Shown: positions 38,698-43,956 of the stretch, piece after piece
How positions within the stretch are numbered: the stretch's first letter is position 1
Layout of the letters: every line of letters begins with the position of its first letter
Assembly (NCBI RefSeq): GCF_963920485.1
Contig: NZ_OY986431.1
Span: 1,736,001 to 1,800,000 of the forward strand
Source of the DNA: Cyanobium usitatum str. Tous
GTDB lineage: Bacteria > Cyanobacteriota > Cyanobacteriia > PCC-6307 > Cyanobiaceae
DNA length: 64,000 bases
Reading direction: 5' to 3'
Made by a program: the position numbers and the translations under genes
The notes under the pieces: generated by a model
What the model was told of the DNA's origin: nothing
What the model saw: only the letters and a program-made list of their open reading frames with translations
Database searches by the model: none

Positions 38698-38940
38698 ATG
38701 GCGATTCGCGAGCTGCTCGAAGATGCCCTCAAGGAGCCGAACATCGGCCTGACCCCTTGCTTTCGCTGGCACGCCACGCCTGTGGGAATTGCAGCCCTGT
38801 GGCAGGCCGGGGCAGCGCCCACTGCTCCTCCCTACGAGGATGCCCTCAAGGAAGGTCTGCAGGTTGGGCTCGATCTAAGTCGCGAAGAGCGGGAGTTTCA
38901 CCAGCTCAATTCAGGCTTGGTGTTGCTGTTTCACAGCTAG
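38698..38940 (+). CDS. conserved hypothetical protein, 80 residues
   Basis: MAIRELLEDALKEPNIGLTP opens a small soluble protein that contains two similar acidic patches, LEDALKEPN and YEDALKEGL, and ends LVLLFHS. No signal peptide, no known family. ATG 38698 is chosen; the frame is open to 38587 but that part lies inside cbiB. It converges with the YciI gene and overlaps it by 30 nt. Confidence 0.6.
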   Translation: MAIRELLEDALKEPNIGLTPCFRWHATPVGIAALWQAGAAPTAPPYEDALKEGLQVGLDLSREEREFHQLNSGLVLLFHS

Positions 38941-39237
38941 GTCTGCTGGCGGAAACACCAGGGCCCATTGATGCAGCGTCCAGCTGACGCATCCCTGGAC
39001 GATCAGCGGATCTGTTCGAACAAGGGCATCGGCCTCTTCCCAACTGGCGGCCCTAAACAGCAACATGCCGCCAGCCCCATCGCCACTGCGGCCGACCCGA
39101 TCGGCCCAATAACCGCTGCGGGGCTCATGGCCCTTGCGCTCCAGCTCTGCCAGCCAGGCCAGGTGGGCTGGGATCACCGCGTCGAATTGGGGCTTGGAAA
39201 CCAGACCCAGCTCAAGCTTCACAAAGGTAGGCCTCAT
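38911..39237 (-). CDS. YciI-like protein
   Basis: A 108-residue protein with the dimeric alpha/beta-barrel pattern of the YCII family: HLAWLAELERKGH (the conserved His), SGYWADRVGRSGDGAGGMLLFRAASWEEADALVRTDP. The family's enzymatic role is mostly unknown. ATG 39237 sits 3 bp downstream of the DUF2256 stop, so the two are probably one transcript. Confidence 0.8.
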   Translation of the reverse strand: MRPTFVKLELGLVSKPQFDAVIPAHLAWLAELERKGHEPRSGYWADRVGRSGDGAGGMLLFRAASWEEADALVRTDPLIVQGCVSWTLHQWALVFPPADLAVKQQHQA

Positions 39238-39240
39238 CCT

Positions 39241-39387
39241 CTAAACCCCCTTGGCGCTGCGCTGCCGGCGGCACCTTTCCGAGCAGTAGCGCACCTCATC
39301 CCAAACATCCTTCCACTTGCGCCGCCACTGGAAAGATCGCTCACAGACAGGGCAGATTTTGGTGGGGCGATTCTCGTGGTGAGGCAT
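39241..39387 (-). CDS. DUF2256 small zinc-finger-like protein
   Basis: A 48-residue ORF beginning [19 protein letters not shown] and containing RYCSERCRR. Two Cys pairs (CPVC and CSERC) around [13 protein letters not shown] match the DUF2256 family, which is probably zinc-binding. In other bacteria it sits near cryptochrome/photolyase genes, but none is visible here. ATG 39387, TAG 39241-39243. Confidence 0.85.
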
Positions 39388-39509
39388 CTCCAGGGGCTGG
39401 GCGCAGATCAGCGATGGGAAATTTAGGCAACTGAAGCCAAACCCAGATCAGGGAAACCACAAAAAGCGACCAAACCATAGTAAGATTATGAAGATTTCAT
39501 AAGGCAGTC

Positions 39510-39809
39510 ATGTTGTTGAGTTTCTTTGGATTCTTATTTGCCGCCCTTTCGTTTGTTCAAGTTCCCCAATGGGACAACGACTGGACAAAATGCTCGGTTG
39601 CAGTCCCAGACACCGCCTGCCATTGGTATGTGGTCAACCCCGACAACACATTTGGCAAAGGATTCAGCTGGATCACCGCCCCTGAGTACGACGTAACGGC
39701 CTTAAGGGATATCGGCCTCCAACACGAAGTGACCGTAGCCCAGGGCTTTCAAACGACCGTAGAGCTGATGAATGCATCTACCGAAGTCAAGTACGGCGAC
39801 AACTACTAA
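39510..39809 (+). CDS. hypothetical exported protein
   Basis: A 99-residue ORF starting MLLSFFGFLFAALSFVQVPQW, a short hydrophobic leader, followed by a polar domain with two Cys (KCSVAVPDTACHWY) that could form a disulfide. No family recognised. It is the first gene of an A+T-richer stretch. ATG 39510 lies after AGGCAGTC. Confidence 0.55.
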   Translation: MLLSFFGFLFAALSFVQVPQWDNDWTKCSVAVPDTACHWYVVNPDNTFGKGFSWITAPEYDVTALRDIGLQHEVTVAQGFQTTVELMNASTEVKYGDNY

Positions 39810-39914
39810 AGCCAAAATCAAAGCAGAGCCAAAACGAACTAGCGCAGCATCAAGCTGCCGGCTACTTATTTTCTTAAGGCCAAGGGATGTGCCGAAATCC
39901 CCTTCCGGCGGCTT

Positions 39915-40136
39915 ATGGGGTTAGGGTTTGAAGACAATAAATCAGTCGTCCTTGCACCAGGGTGGCCTCAATACCCTGCCATGGACTCTTCAATTCTGTT
40001 TGCCTTAAACTGGAATTCGCTCGGAGAGCTAGCCACCGAAGACCTTGAGTACGTGCTCAATTCAATGGCCCATGCCATGGATTCAGGCAAAGAAGAATTC
40101 AGTTCGCTATACAGCAAAGTGAATATCTGTGCATGA
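39915..40136 (+). CDS. hypothetical protein, 73 residues
   Basis: A small acidic ORF (SILFALNWNSLGELATEDLE) with a helical C-terminal half and no recognised family. Composition is unlike the G+C-rich shadow frames elsewhere, and no better frame covers the region. An ATG at 39981 (MDSSILF) is an alternative start. Confidence 0.35.
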   Translation: MGLGFEDNKSVVLAPGWPQYPAMDSSILFALNWNSLGELATEDLEYVLNSMAHAMDSGKEEFSSLYSKVNICA

Positions 40137-40216
40137 GCCGCAAAATCAATAGCAATTAGTTGTCAAGCCCTGAATTAGGGTATGGGCAACATGCAAAGTC
40201 TAAAAATACAGGAATA

Positions 40217-40441
40217 TCACTTTTGACGCTTTAAGCAATTGGCGAGGTTCTCCTTGGCTATTGCCAGTGCCTCCGTACAGGTCTCCTTGTCGTCCTTATC
40301 AATATCGCCCTGCTCGCCACGAAGACGCTGTTCCAGAAAATCAATTTCCTCCTGCCAGTGCTCAGTGCCCATATCAAAGACAGGCCGCTCCCCATCATTG
40401 GCATCGTCGTCGATCAAAGAGAAATCGTCGTCCCTCATCAT
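40217..40441 (-). CDS. small acidic hypothetical protein
   Basis: A 74-residue, strongly acidic protein (MMRDDDFSLIDDDANDGERP) with a helical, coiled-coil-like middle (EEIDFLEQRLRGEQGDID) and a C-terminal KRQK. No family recognised. The opposite-strand frame over the same bases is Ser-rich and less plausible. Confidence 0.4.
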   Translation of the reverse strand: MMRDDDFSLIDDDANDGERPVFDMGTEHWQEEIDFLEQRLRGEQGDIDKDDKETCTEALAIAKENLANCLKRQK

Positions 40442-40538
40442 AAGTAGTGATGGAAATCAACCCAAGGATGCCGCAGGAAGCAGGAAAGGGAAATCCCCTT
40501 AATTCACTGCCACACTGCAACCACCCGACCAAGCAGCA

Positions 40539-41000
40539 ATGAACGAACAGCCAGGCGCTCCAAAGCAGTTCGGAAGTCGCCTTGATGAGGAGACGATTGA
40601 AGAAAATAGGGAACTTCTTGGCAAAATTGGTAGCGATAGCATCTCAGAGGCAGCTGAAATCAAAGGAAGCATATACTTCTATACCAATACTTGCGTCGAC
40701 GGCCAGCAAAACAAAGAAGAATTAATTGACGACCCGACAGCGCTAGATGCTGCGATTAAAAATCTTACAGTAGAGATAAAATACGAACATAAGCACCATC
40801 GATGGGCCGCCCAGCTGCCTCACGCATTAAAAATATTGGAGTTTGCTGCAGCACGCTTAAGGCTAAATAACAATATCTCGCCCGACAATATAGGCATTAA
40901 TGCTGAGCTAAGGTGGCGGGACGAGAAAGACTTTGAAAATATCATTCATCTTACTCAAAGCAAAGGCAATGCCGAATGGCAGGTATCACGATTTGCCTGA
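40539..41000 (+). CDS. hypothetical protein with N-terminus shared with the ORF at 43557
   Basis: A 153-residue soluble protein. Residues 6-22 (GAPKQFGSRLDEETIEE) resemble the start of the small DNA-binding-like protein at 43557-43808 (DAPKQFGIRLSEATM), while the rest does not. The remainder is alpha-rich (ALDAAIKNLTVEIKYEHKHH) without a known domain. It may be a fusion or recombination product. ATG 40539. Confidence 0.5.
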   Translation: MNEQPGAPKQFGSRLDEETIEENRELLGKIGSDSISEAAEIKGSIYFYTNTCVDGQQNKEELIDDPTALDAAIKNLTVEIKYEHKHHRWAAQLPHALKILEFAAARLRLNNNISPDNIGINAELRWRDEKDFENIIHLTQSKGNAEWQVSRFA

Positions 41001-41206
41001 TGGAATCATGGTATTGCAGTAACCAGATCCAGTAGCAAAGACGCTCTTCATCAAGTGCTCAAGCGAAGGGAGAGGAGCGGGTCGTCAGCGACGGGAGAGA
41101 AACTTCCGCCCACTTCCTCGACCTATGGACGGGTCGAACTCCGCCATAGAGGGGTATTTGAGTCAGGCAGAGGCATGGAGCGCGAGCAGTAGCAAGGTTT
41201 GTTCAC

Positions 41207-41241
41207 AAAAAAATCCCTGGCGTGTTCGACTCCACCAGGGA
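41207..41241 (-). terminator. minus-strand intrinsic-terminator-like hairpin
   Basis: TCCCTGG (41214-41220) pairs with CCAGGGA (41235-41241). On the minus strand the stem is followed by seven T (A run at 41207-41213 on the plus strand), the layout of a rho-independent terminator for a leftward transcript. No convincing minus-strand gene ends here, so it may end an unannotated small RNA. Confidence 0.45.
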
Positions 41242-41419
41242 CATGCTTCCCGTCGCTCATCACGACCTGCATAGGCTATTAGGCATTTACACTCACGGCA
41301 TGGCGTGATTACCGCAGGTGTTCATGCGGACACACTCAAGGCGCCTCACCCAGCCACAGAACACCACTGGCTCAGATGTTCCCTTGAGGAATCAGAATCT
41401 GGTGGAGCGGCAGCGTCTT

Positions 41420-41522
41420 TTGGAGGCGTGACCTGGCTCGACCGTTGAGCGATGGGGAGTTCCGCAAATCGCTGGAACGTATCTGGGCGAAAGGAAAGCG
41501 CTTGCAAACCATAATATCTTAA
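41420..41522 (+). pseudogene. decayed short coding sequence, copy 1
   Basis: The frame TTG GAG GCG is interrupted by TGA, and one extra base before 41445 shifts the rest, which reads LSDGEFRKSLERIWAKGKRL to TAA 41520-41522. The second copy at 42047 encodes TLSDKGFRKTLDRIWKKEQR in one open frame, so this copy has a stop and a frameshift relative to it. Family unknown. Confidence 0.5.
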
Positions 41523-41598
41523 AAAAGTTTTAAATGGTATTCCTGGCAACATGAGAAGGAAGGGTTGGACAGGGGCGCCTGTTAACTTAAACTAAAAG

Positions 41599-41907
41599 AT
41601 GGCCCTTTACCAGTGGATTACTTGCATAGAGCATGTCGATGTGAATCGGCAACTTCTTATATGCCTGCAGGAAAATAATCTAGAACTAGACCCAGAATTC
41701 TCTAGCCGCAAGATCATCTATGCCAGGGACGGCAACAAAAGCAAGTGCGCCTGGAATACACGAGTAGATATCATTATATCTCCCAATAATGGCATGACGG
41801 ATGAATATGTAGTTGAGGTAAGAAGTTCTGAACCGATGCTCAAAAAAGGAACGCGATGCGAAGAAGTCGCCACTCTGCTCAAAACTGTAATTCCGCCGAA
41901 ATCATAA
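41599..41907 (+). CDS. hypothetical protein, 102 residues
   Basis: MALYQWITCIEHVDVNRQLL opens a compact alpha/beta protein with a middle strand-rich part (VDIIISPNNGMTDEYVVEVR) and KKGTRCEEVATLLKTV at the end. Three Cys, no signal peptide, no recognised family. A+T-rich codon use matches the surrounding segment rather than the core genome. Confidence 0.5.
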   Translation: MALYQWITCIEHVDVNRQLLICLQENNLELDPEFSSRKIIYARDGNKSKCAWNTRVDIIISPNNGMTDEYVVEVRSSEPMLKKGTRCEEVATLLKTVIPPKS

Positions 41908-42046
41908 GATGCGCCACACAATAAAGAGCTGGGACGCCGCCTCGCCTCCGCTGAAACCCTAGGGATGGGCGCTTAATTTAATTAATCAACTTGTGGATTA
42001 AAATCACCTCCAACCAGTTCTAAATCCCAAAATCTGTCAGCGACCT

Positions 42047-42130
42047 TTGGAGGCGAGATCAGGCAAAACGCTGAGCGATAAAGGGTTCCGCAAAACACTA
42101 GATCGGATCTGGAAGAAGGAACAGCGGTAG
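42047..42130 (+). pseudogene. fragment of the same short coding sequence, copy 2
   Basis: An open run of 27 codons (LEARSGKTLSDKGFRKTLDR and on) ending at TAG 42128-42130. It matches copy 1 at 41420-41522 over about 80 bp at the nucleotide level, including TTTGGAGGCG, GAGCGAT, GTTCCGCAAA and ATCTGG. There is no convincing start codon or upstream similarity, so it looks like the 3' end of a lost gene. The rest of the 340-bp gap 41908-42248 shows nothing else. Confidence 0.5.
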
Positions 42131-42248
42131 AGTGAGCGGCGCAATGGTTGCTCAGGCGACTGGGAGGAAAGGTCTCAAGTCAGCCGAAGACGAAAGCATG
42201 GAATCATCCTAAGTGCTAAATTAATGACTCAGAATTGACCAACTTTTT

Positions 42249-42902
42249 ATGAGTTTTGAATTTGGCGATCCAGATATTTTTGATAAGATTTACGAGAATT
42301 CATACTGGGGCAAGGGTTCTGGGGGCGGAAGCTCCCCTGAAGCAACTGAACCCTACAAAATATTCCTCGAAGGCTTCATTCGTCAACATGATATTAAATC
42401 CATCATTGACCTCGGCTGCGGTGATTGGCAGTTTTCCCAGTTTTTAGACTTTGGCGGCGCAACATATATTGGCGTCGATGCCTCTAAAAATGTAATCGCA
42501 GATAATCAGCGTTCATTCTCGCGGCCAGGGGTCTCCTTTGCAAATCTTCCAGATAGCTATAGCGAGCTCCCCTCCGCCGACCTACTAGTTTGCAAAGACG
42601 TACTGATGCATTTAGACACAAAGAAAGTTCAAGATGTTCTATCAATTCTTCCAAGCTTCAAATACGCGCTGATTACTAATGACATTCCTTGCCTATCTGC
42701 TTTCGGGAGAGTTCTTCAAAAGATGCGCAAACCATTTTCGCCCGTAATCAACAAAGAAATAAAAACAGGAGACTACAGAACCCTTGACCCGACTCAACCC
42801 CCATTCAACCTCAAGATGAAAAAGGTATTCGAATGGAAGGGCAATAATCTAATACTTGGCAAAAACTGTGATTGGAAAAAGAGAACTTATTTGCATCAGT
42901 AA
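42249..42902 (+). CDS. class I SAM-dependent methyltransferase
   Basis: A 217-residue Rossmann-fold methyltransferase. Motif I is SIIDLGCGDWQFSQFL near residue 56, the acidic end of strand 2 is YIGVDASKNVI, and motif IV is DLLVCKDVLMHLD near 115. The N-terminal SYWGKGSGGGSSPEATEPY resembles methyltransferases found in surface-polysaccharide or peptide clusters, but no such cluster is present. Substrate unknown. A+T-rich codon use suggests acquisition by transfer. Confidence 0.8.
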   Translation: MSFEFGDPDIFDKIYENSYWGKGSGGGSSPEATEPYKIFLEGFIRQHDIKSIIDLGCGDWQFSQFLDFGGATYIGVDASKNVIADNQRSFSRPGVSFANLPDSYSELPSADLLVCKDVLMHLDTKKVQDVLSILPSFKYALITNDIPCLSAFGRVLQKMRKPFSPVINKEIKTGDYRTLDPTQPPFNLKMKKVFEWKGNNLILGKNCDWKKRTYLHQ

Positions 42903-42903
42903 T

Positions 42904-43155
42904 TCAATCGTCAACAACCTCCAACAAATCCTCAATCCTGCAATCCAACACCGTCACCACCTTCCCCGCCAGATCCAAAGAAAGTGCTGACGCCGCTTTC
43001 TGATCGTTCCGTGCCAGTCGGGTAATTGTGGTTGCCGCCACTCCTGCCGCCACTGCCAAGGCATTCATCGTGATTGCCTTCTCGCCCGCCACAGCACGAC
43101 GCATATTTGCCTTAGCAATTGCCTTGGCAAGGGTCAGACGAACTTGCTTTGCCAT
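42904..43155 (-). CDS. small helix-turn-helix (XRE/Cro-like) regulator
   Basis: An 83-residue basic protein. ITMNALAVAAGVAATTITRLAR at about 29-50 is a helix-turn-helix, followed by a dimerisation-like end LSLDLAGKVVTVLDCRIEDL. This is the layout of short Cro/CI-type or YozG-like regulators. ATG 43155 (MAKQVRLTLAK) is preferred over 43164. It converges with the methyltransferase gene, 1 bp apart, and is divergent from the ORF at 43238. Confidence 0.75.
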   Translation of the reverse strand: MAKQVRLTLAKAIAKANMRRAVAGEKAITMNALAVAAGVAATTITRLARNDQKAASALSLDLAGKVVTVLDCRIEDLLEVVDD

Positions 43156-43237
43156 AAAAAGCACTATAGCTCAAGCGCCATAGCAGGGCAAATAAGCACG
43201 TATTACTTATACTTCTGTACTTAGCGCAGGAAATAGA

Positions 43238-43504
43238 GTGTCAGGCACCAAGCTTAAGCACTGCTTGAACCACCACAAATCCCACCAGGGCAACCAAGGC
43301 AAGAAGCGATGGGAAACCAGTTGTAACCATACCGACTCCGCTTACAACACCATTTCTAAAGCAATTCTAAATAGAGGTGTGTCGCAAGAAGCACAGGTCA
43401 ATGCCAGCCGACTTCTCCGCCACTCAGTAGCCGATCAACCGCTGGAGACGGTTGCCATGGGGGTGACAGCATCACCGGATGCTGTCGAACTAATTACCAG
43501 ATAA
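43238..43504 (+). CDS. hypothetical protein, 88 residues
   Basis: A His/Asn/Lys-rich N-terminus (KLKHCLNHHKSHQGNQGKK) followed by a helical part (VSQEAQVNASRLLRHSVADQ). GTG start. No family recognised; divergent from the helix-turn-helix gene. Moderate doubt that it is expressed. Confidence 0.35.
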   Translation: MSGTKLKHCLNHHKSHQGNQGKKRWETSCNHTDSAYNTISKAILNRGVSQEAQVNASRLLRHSVADQPLETVAMGVTASPDAVELITR

Positions 43505-43556
43505 TTGCTTTTGAGTATCAAACGCACAATATTGGTGATTTGAGACAGTAATTTCA

Positions 43557-43808
43557 GTGTTGAGCGGGAAGAAACTCAAAGCAGTTCGCCCCTCCAACCC
43601 CTTTTCCCAGAAACCCACAGAGGTTCAAACCGATGCTCCCAAGCAATTCGGTATCCGCCTCAGTGAGGCCACGATGAAACTGGTATCCGAAATCCAGCAT
43701 CACCGCCAGCGCACCAATCAACCCATCACCCTCGCTTCCATCGTGGAAGACGCCATTCAGTGTCACTACAACCGATTGGTGAATGAGGGTGTCATCAAAA
43801 ACGACTGA
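43557..43808 (+). CDS. small ribbon-helix-helix-like protein
   Basis: An 83-residue protein: APKQFGIRLSEATMKLVSEI, then a linker TNQPITLASIVEDAIQCHYN. A strand followed by two helices is the pattern of plasmid/antitoxin-type MetJ/Arc regulators. Its N-terminal motif recurs in the ORF at 40539. GTG start at 43557 is likely but not certain. Confidence 0.55.
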   Translation: MLSGKKLKAVRPSNPFSQKPTEVQTDAPKQFGIRLSEATMKLVSEIQHHRQRTNQPITLASIVEDAIQCHYNRLVNEGVIKND

Positions 43809-43871
43809 TGACTCCACCAATCCCCTTGAGATCTAGGGGAATTTTGCAATCTGCCGGAAAACTTGTAAAAG

Positions 43872-43956
43872 CGGAGAGGGTGGGATTCGAACCCACGGAA
43901 GGTTTCCCTTCAAACGATTTCGAGTCGTTCGCTTTCGACCACTCAGCCACCTCTCC
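43872..43956 (-). tRNA. tRNA-Ser (anticodon CGA)
   Basis: Minus-strand reading: acceptor GGAGAGG pairs with CCTCTCC, D-arm TGGCTGAGTGGTCGA, anticodon stem AACGA/TCGTT around CTCGAAA gives CGA, a long class II variable arm, T-arm GTGGGTTCGAATCCCAC, discriminator G. Its 3' end faces the A+T-rich segment at lower coordinates, the usual side for elements that integrate into tRNA 3' ends. Confidence 0.95.

What the first reader, a model, noticed from the sequence alone, without database searches (positions are those of the whole stretch)
39420..43870. A+T-rich accessory segment ending at the 3' side of tRNA-Ser(CGA)
Base composition and codon use change sharply near 39.4 kb and return to normal at the tRNA. 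The segment holds small unknown ORFs, a methyltransferase, two small DNA-binding proteins and gene relics. Integration beside tRNA 3' ends is typical for mobile islands of picocyanobacteria. I saw no integrase and no second copy of the tRNA end, so it would be a degraded or cargo-only remnant.
Basis: partly seen in the sequence, partly recalled or inferred. Interest (0 to 1): 0.5.

Follow-up and report, generated by a model that had tools for sequence, protein, structure and literature searches.

The report
Eroded remnant at a tRNA-Ser hotspot
A freshwater cyanobacterium carries the worn-down leftovers of mobile DNA beside one serine tRNA gene, a landing site where its relatives still carry integrase-bearing elements; it is a well-documented example of a known kind of hotspot.

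Summary
In detail: 39.42-43.87 kb has 47.7% GC against 65.0% elsewhere in the window, ends at the 3' end of tRNA-Ser(CGA), and shows no integrase and no second tRNA end. Comparison supports the interpretation and sharpens it. Between the same flanking genes relatives carry 1.9 to 39 kb. In 13 genus loci that could be read, 6 have a tyrosine integrase next to this tRNA, 2 have stubs, 5 (window included) none. Three relatives hold an exact second copy of the 18-nt tRNA 3' core. In 151 family genomes, 22 of 30 integrase matches lie 164-633 bp from a tRNA-Ser (20 CGA, 2 TGA), always on its strand. Another genus has an empty site. Two corrections: 39510-39809 is a strongly conserved gene, not accessory; and 39.84-41.0 kb is older accreted DNA that lies outside the second tRNA-end copy in one relative. 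The block 42.89-43.83 kb is the tRNA-distal half of a module that sits inside siblings' elements; it stops 46 bp from the tRNA, as expected if a deletion took the integrase end. The tRNA site is intact and unoccupied. Known kind, moderate interest.

The parts
38911..39387 (-). Conserved left flank of the genus: YCII-like gene (38911-39237) and DUF2256 gene (39241-39387); not part of the remnant
   Evidence: Pfam YCII 1.9e-07, DUF2256 5.2e-20; YCII in 12 of 15 same-genus relatives
39510..39809 (+). 99-aa gene, A+T-rich but conserved in the genus; relatives in cyanophages (phrog_1187)
   Evidence: dN/dS 0.01-0.06 in seven pairs, two pairs with saturated dS; 181 of 50,697 phage records; phrog_1187 1.4e-31
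39842..40500 (.). Old accreted DNA shared with the closest relatives; holds ORFs 39915-40136 (+, 73 aa) and 40217-40441 (-, 74 aa)
   Evidence: blastn to G001, G005, G012 and in part G011; dN/dS 0.11-0.20 against those four
40501..41008 (+). Older remnant with a 153-aa ORF (40539-41000) whose 5' end is homologous to the 5' end of the 43557 gene family
   Evidence: 40501-40597 against the 5' part of that gene in L010, L011, L019, L027, L028, L037; whole block in G001, G005, G012
41070..41410 (-). Relic: 3' end of a small Cys-rich-protein gene, its intrinsic terminator and downstream DNA
   Evidence: Alignment of 11 copies; intact gene copies e.g. L010:10069 and L020:6549
41388..41510 (+). C-terminal relic, copy 1, of a small membrane-protein gene
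41599..41907 (+). 102-aa ORF of unknown kind
   Evidence: No Pfam match; only sub-significant NCBIfam/PHROG matches
42038..42127 (+). C-terminal relic, copy 2, of the small membrane-protein gene
42249..42902 (+). Cargo: class I SAM-dependent methyltransferase gene, apparently under purifying selection
   Evidence: Methyltransf_11 26.2 bits over its cut-off; phrog_3382 1.4e-19; dN/dS 0.12-0.14 against three relatives
42904..43164 (-). Module gene 1: Cro/C1-type HTH protein (HTH_26)
   Evidence: PF13443 2e-07; copies in many element loci
43235..43504 (+). Module intergenic DNA and relic of module gene 2 (115-aa protein elsewhere)
   Evidence: blastn 43235-43396 and 43417-43647 against module copies; the intact protein has no tblastn match here
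43557..43808 (+). Module gene 3: 83-aa protein, possibly ribbon-helix-helix (fold not confirmed)
   Evidence: 93% identity to own-genome copies over residues 26-83 and 26-81; alignment of 12; model two helices, pTM 0.46, no significant PDB match
43809..43825 (+). First bases of module gene 4 (127 aa elsewhere); homology to the module stops at 43825
43826..43870 (.). Junction DNA between the truncated module and the tRNA; no integrase, no tRNA-proximal repeats
43871..43956 (-). tRNA-Ser(CGA); the 18-nt core duplicated in relatives is 43873-43890
   Evidence: ARAGORN; core copies

Best explanation
The 3' end of tRNA-Ser(CGA) is the landing site (attB) of integrative elements of picocyanobacteria. 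Each element brings a P4-type tyrosine integrase (arm-binding domain plus recombinase domain) and an AlpA-like protein. Recombination between the element's copy of the tRNA 3' end and the gene rebuilds the tRNA and leaves a partial copy at the far end. Elements have come and gone here more than once. In the window's genome none is present now. What remains is an eroded pile: old accreted DNA (39.84-41.0 kb), relics plus one apparently functional cargo gene (the methyltransferase), and the tRNA-distal half of a regulator/recombination module whose other half, with the AlpA/integrase end, was lost by a deletion that stops 46 bp short of the tRNA. Shown by sequence: variable locus, integrases at this tRNA in relatives, duplicated tRNA ends in relatives, module homology and orientation, truncation point, no match to this integrase family in this genome at E<=1e-30. 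Inferred: the deletion, the reaction itself, and that the site is still usable.
For: Length between the same flanks 1.9-39 kb in six contiguous loci. Integrase beside the tRNA in 6 of 13 readable genus loci, stubs in 2; Pfam integrase and AlpA domains in the four full-length pairs. 22 of 30 family-wide matches beside tRNA-Ser, 22 of 22 on its strand. Exact second copies of the 18-nt core in G004, G012, G015; exact repeat 47, 22 and 25 bp. Empty site in G020, 91 bp between gene and tRNA. The module lies between att copy and tRNA in G004 and has the same orientation to the tRNA in the window, G001, G004 and G005.
Against: The window itself has no integrase, no att copy and no tRNA-proximal repeats, so its element history rests on relatives. 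The module also sits complete at two own-genome places (L010, L011) with no tRNA in 18 kb, so the module alone does not prove tRNA integration. Blocks are rearranged relative to G001, G005 and G012, so other recombination acted too. In G012 and G015 att copy and tRNA lie on different contigs. The G005 stub is weak on its own (E 0.15, 0.004). 8 of 30 family integrases show no tRNA in the fetched flank.
Confidence: 0.82

Rival explanations
1. The segment never was part of a tRNA-integrated element: homologous recombination, insertion sequences and decay assembled an A+T-rich patch, and the elements of relatives merely insert beside it.
For: No integrase, att copy or tRNA-proximal repeats in the window. 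Module copies exist away from tRNAs. Block order is rearranged among the closest relatives. 39.84-41.0 kb lies outside the att copy in G012.
Against: The module of 42.89-43.83 kb lies inside the att-bounded element in G004, in the same orientation to the tRNA, and the homology stops 46 bp from the attachment core. G005 keeps module relics together with an integrase stub beside the tRNA.
Confidence: 0.13
2. Clean excision: the last element left precisely, so the window shows a restored attB, and the A+T-rich DNA is only the outer flank of former elements, not their remains.
For: The tRNA and its 3' flank are intact with a single core copy; by eye the flank resembles the outer flank of the att copies of G004 and G015. 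39.84-41.0 kb is outer flank in G012.
Against: 42.89-43.83 kb is element-type DNA in G004, so at least one earlier element was not cleanly removed. This reading and the best one can both be true for different elements.
Confidence: 0.25
3. Degraded prophage.
For: A tRNA-Ser-bounded relic prophage is reported in Synechococcus RS9917 (PMC2784084, passages); 39510-39809 has cyanophage relatives.
Against: 39510-39809 is a conserved host-side gene. Five window proteins scanned against PHROGs gave no convincing virion match (one methyltransferase stretch hits a structural family at E 0.04); the other ORFs were not scanned against PHROGs except through own-genome copies of the module.
Confidence: 0.04

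Closest known systems
tRNA-integrated genomic islands with tyrosine integrases (Islander-type; PMC4383910, start of abstract seen in a listing)
   Same: 3' end of a tRNA gene as target; in relatives a tyrosine integrase beside it and a displaced tRNA fragment at the far end
   Different: The window copy has lost integrase and displaced fragment; it is a remnant
P4-type integrative elements / satellites (P4 integrase plus AlpA; features recalled)
   Same: Arm-DNA-bind_3 plus Phage_integrase domains and an AlpA gene in relatives
   Different: No P4 replication or packaging-hijack genes shown; the DUF5906 match in one G012 protein (24.4 bits) is below its cut-off of 27.6
Tycheposons of Prochlorococcus and others (known to me only through PMC10872708 passages; primary paper not held)
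   Same: tRNA at the border, tyrosine recombinase, variable cargo
   Different: Recombinase relationship not tested; the tRNA set of tycheposons was not seen; window copy lacks the recombinase
tRNA-Ser-bounded relic-prophage island in Synechococcus RS9917 (PMC2784084, passages)
   Same: Degraded island bounded by a tRNA-Ser in a picocyanobacterium, with an integrase
   Different: Prophage genes reported there; none found in the part of the window scanned; the isoacceptor was not in the passages read

Membership tests
tRNA-integrated genomic island | Lies at the 3' end of a tRNA gene | tested here: met
   tRNA-Ser(CGA) 43871-43956, minus strand, 3' end facing the segment
tRNA-integrated genomic island | Atypical composition and variable presence among relatives | tested here: met
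   GC 0.477 against 0.650; 1.9-39 kb between the same flanks; empty site in G020
tRNA-integrated genomic island | Integrase gene in the island | tested here: not met
   None in the window and no match in the genome at E<=1e-30; present in 6 of 13 genus loci
tRNA-integrated genomic island | Direct repeat of the tRNA 3' end at the far border | tested here: not met
   No second core in the window; present in G004, G012, G015
P4-type integrative element | P4-type integrase plus AlpA | tested here: not met
   Absent from the window; present in four relatives with Pfam support
P4-type integrative element | Satellite replication and packaging functions | tested here: inconclusive
   One sub-threshold DUF5906 match in G012; element proteins only partly scanned
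Tycheposon | Recombinase of the tycheposon lineage | not tested
   No reference recombinases compared
Prophage | Virion or packaging genes | tested here: inconclusive
   Five of ten window ORFs scanned against PHROGs, no convincing virion match

The most novel reading that the evidence does not exclude
One tRNA 3' end, tRNA-Ser(CGA), is a shared dock across a whole cyanobacterial family for at least four groups of P4-type integrases, each with its own set of tRNA-proximal repeats. A conserved module (HTH / 115 aa / 83 aa / 127 aa / often Nif11 / annealing-protein-like) and cargo such as the methyltransferase move between this dock, tRNA-Ser(GCT) and places without a tRNA; the module would be an undescribed regulator/recombination core of small cyanobacterial elements.
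Probability: 0.4. Interest if true: 0.5.

Novelty: new member of a known kind. Interest (0 to 1): 0.38.

Why it matters
It gives freshwater picocyanobacteria a concrete, sequence-level integration hotspot: attachment core, several integrase groups, and empty, occupied and eroded states in related genomes, with an intact unoccupied target in one single-contig genome. That makes integration, excision and the order of decay of cyanobacterial islands directly testable. By itself the window segment is an ordinary remnant.

Tried and rejected
The repeated ~100-bp stretches 41400-41500 and 42038-42139 were first thought to be recombination sites between cassettes; alignment and reading frames showed C-terminal relics of small membrane-protein genes. 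The 41070-41367 block was considered a structured RNA; it reads as the 3' end of a small Cys-rich-protein gene with an intrinsic terminator (no covariation test was run). Rfam on 38.9-44.0 kb: only the tRNA reaches its family's gathering score. Ribbon-helix-helix fold of the 43557 gene: the single-sequence model was weak and PDB matches not significant. PF00589 alone missed the G004 integrase; it was found as an ORF and by tblastn and by PF22022. Viral contigs: three relatives of the annealing-protein-like gene, but no other module protein beside them at E<=1e-6 in the fetched DNA. Distant methyltransferase relatives in other phyla (L014-L018) were not followed.
Full report
OBSERVATION. The window is 1,736,001-1,800,000 of a single-contig genome of 2.66 Mb. 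The segment 39420-43870 has 47.7% GC; the rest of the window has 65.0%, and none of 1013 overlapping 4450-base windows outside it falls below 57.5%. The drop is at about 39.3-39.4 kb and the return at the tRNA. tRNA-Ser(CGA) is on the minus strand at 43871-43956, so its 3' end faces the segment. GC3 of eight ORFs inside is 0.44-0.65 against 0.67-0.86 in five flanking genes. The window shows no integrase and no second tRNA end; the genome shows no match to this integrase family at E<=1e-30 and no displaced tRNA-Ser(CGA) end.

RELATIVES. I searched 40 genomes (the window's own, 15 of its genus, 24 more distant) with ComEC (right flank), YCII (left flank) and the segment, and fetched loci. On single contigs the distance from YCII to the tRNA is 1.9 kb (G013), 2.0 kb (G014), 3.4 kb (G007), 4.6 kb (window), 5.7 kb (G005) and 39.3 kb (G004). 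G020, of another genus, has the 80-aa gene that in the window precedes YCII 91 bp from tRNA-Ser(CGA), with ComEC on the other side: an empty site.

INTEGRASES. Next to the tRNA 3' end lie full-length integrases with an AlpA gene in G001 (L027:15229-16494), G004 (L019:2829-4169), G012 (L029:2388-3620) and G015 (L030:2740-4023). Pfam gives Arm-DNA-bind_3 and Phage_integrase for three, only Phage_int_M for the G004 one, and Phage_AlpA for all four small proteins. Integrases cut by contig ends are in G008 and G009, and G024 of another genus has one with AlpA. Stubs are in G010 (two N-terminal pieces, 133 bp from the tRNA) and G005 (18 residues, 132 bp from the tRNA; E 0.15, 0.004). Of 13 genus loci whose tRNA 3' side could be read: integrase in 6 (G001, G004, G008, G009, G012, G015), stub in 2 (G005, G010), none in 5 (window, G002, G007, G013, G014). 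For G003, G006 and G011 the contig ends there. A further stub (G001:C50, L037:3390-3527) is on a contig without the tRNA. In 151 genomes of the family the G015 integrase has 30 matches in 26 genomes at E<=1e-30; 22 of 30 fetched loci hold a tRNA-Ser (20 CGA, 2 TGA), 22 of 22 on the same strand, gap 164-633 bp, median 186. The other 8 show no tRNA in the fetched flank, some of which is short.

DUPLICATED tRNA END. The core GGAGAGGGTGGGATTCGA occurs exactly a second time in G004 (L020:7012, 24.3 kb from the tRNA on one contig), G012 (L028:12647) and G015 (L031:7702), the last two on the contig that carries YCII. The exact repeat is 47, 22 and 25 bp. Chance expectation over the 781,574 bases held at that point, with equal base frequencies, is about 2e-5. 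Short repeats between tRNA and integrase go with the integrase group: G001 with G009, G015 with G024, G012 with G008, and G004 alone; that they are arm-type binding sites is inference. By eye, repeats of the G004 type also lie inside the att copies of G004, G012 and G015, which points to layered insertions; the G012 and G015 drafts do not join across the element.

ANATOMY. (a) 39510-39809 was found in nine of nine genus loci searched for it with enough left flank (dN/dS 0.01-0.06 in seven, dS saturated in two); in G010 the contig ends and a copy is on another contig. It matches 181 of 50,697 phage records, all cyanophage, none over 80% of its length. (b) 39842-41008 is shared with G001, G005, G012 and in part G011; in G012 it lies outside the att copy. 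The 5' end of the ORF at 40539 is homologous to the 5' end of the 43557 family, so I read it as an older module remnant. In G001, G005 and G012 other pieces stand between 40499 and 40501. (c) 41070-41410, 41388-41510 and 42038-42127 are relics. (e) 42890-43825 matches a module that is complete at two other places of the same genome (L010:5281-7644, L011:8742-11538; no tRNA in those 18-kb loci): HTH, 115 aa, 83-aa type, 127 aa, Nif11, annealing-protein-like; G001 has it without Nif11. The last label rests on sub-threshold matches (PF06378 E 0.0063, phrog_3290 E 0.0022). In the window gene 2 is a relic and homology stops at 43825, 46 bp from the tRNA. The module has the same orientation to the tRNA in the window, G001, G004 and G005, in G012 by contig inference; in G004 it lies between att copy and tRNA. 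A relative of the annealing-like protein is in 15 of 151 family genomes.

MECHANISM. Elements enter at the tRNA 3' end by integrase-mediated recombination and leave a partial copy at the far side. Here the integrase-proximal end was most likely removed by deletion, leaving the tRNA intact and the distal half of the module. Deletion and present usability of the site are inferred.

KNOWN OR NEW. tRNA-directed islands with tyrosine integrases are well known (Islander, PMC4383910: start of abstract in a listing). In picocyanobacteria, island borders were set with the help of tRNA and integrase genes in PMC2441476 (passages); PMC2784084 describes a tRNA-Ser-bounded relic-prophage island in Synechococcus RS9917 (passages); PMC9361551 reports phage integrases in the majority of strains and asks for closed freshwater genomes (passages). 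My searches listed no title or abstract start that describes this tRNA-Ser(CGA) hotspot in Cyanobium; the lists were capped, and the primary tycheposon paper was not among the papers they listed. I file it as a new member of a known kind.

Noticed in passing
Own genome 1,435,597-1,453,959 (L039:5598 to L040:4959): An 18.3-kb element at tRNA-Ser(TGA), bounded by a 64-bp, 98% direct repeat of the tRNA end, with type I restriction-modification genes (HsdM, HsdS, R subunit), a Phage_integrase-family gene and an AAA_25 gene. The 370-aa ORF beside the tRNA matches no Pfam family.
   Followed up: partly
39510-39809: A strongly conserved host gene whose relatives occur in 181 cyanophage records, many annotated carboxylesterase although only about 70 residues match.
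   Followed up: partly
41070-41367; L036:4114-4411, L060:78-374, L061:9114-9408, L064:2050-2248: The block lies 250-320 bp downstream of tRNA-Ser(GCT) in G012, G004 and G015 and of tRNA-Cys in G010, always in the same orientation.
   Followed up: partly
L034:1382-1638, L036:4796-5115, and relics in the window: A pair of adjacent small single-membrane-segment protein genes with similar C-termini recurs in these islands; function unknown.
   Followed up: no
L019:16863 to L020:4965 (G004): The G004 element at tRNA-Ser(CGA) carries type I restriction-modification genes, with the R subunit C-terminal domain split over two ORFs.
   Followed up: partly
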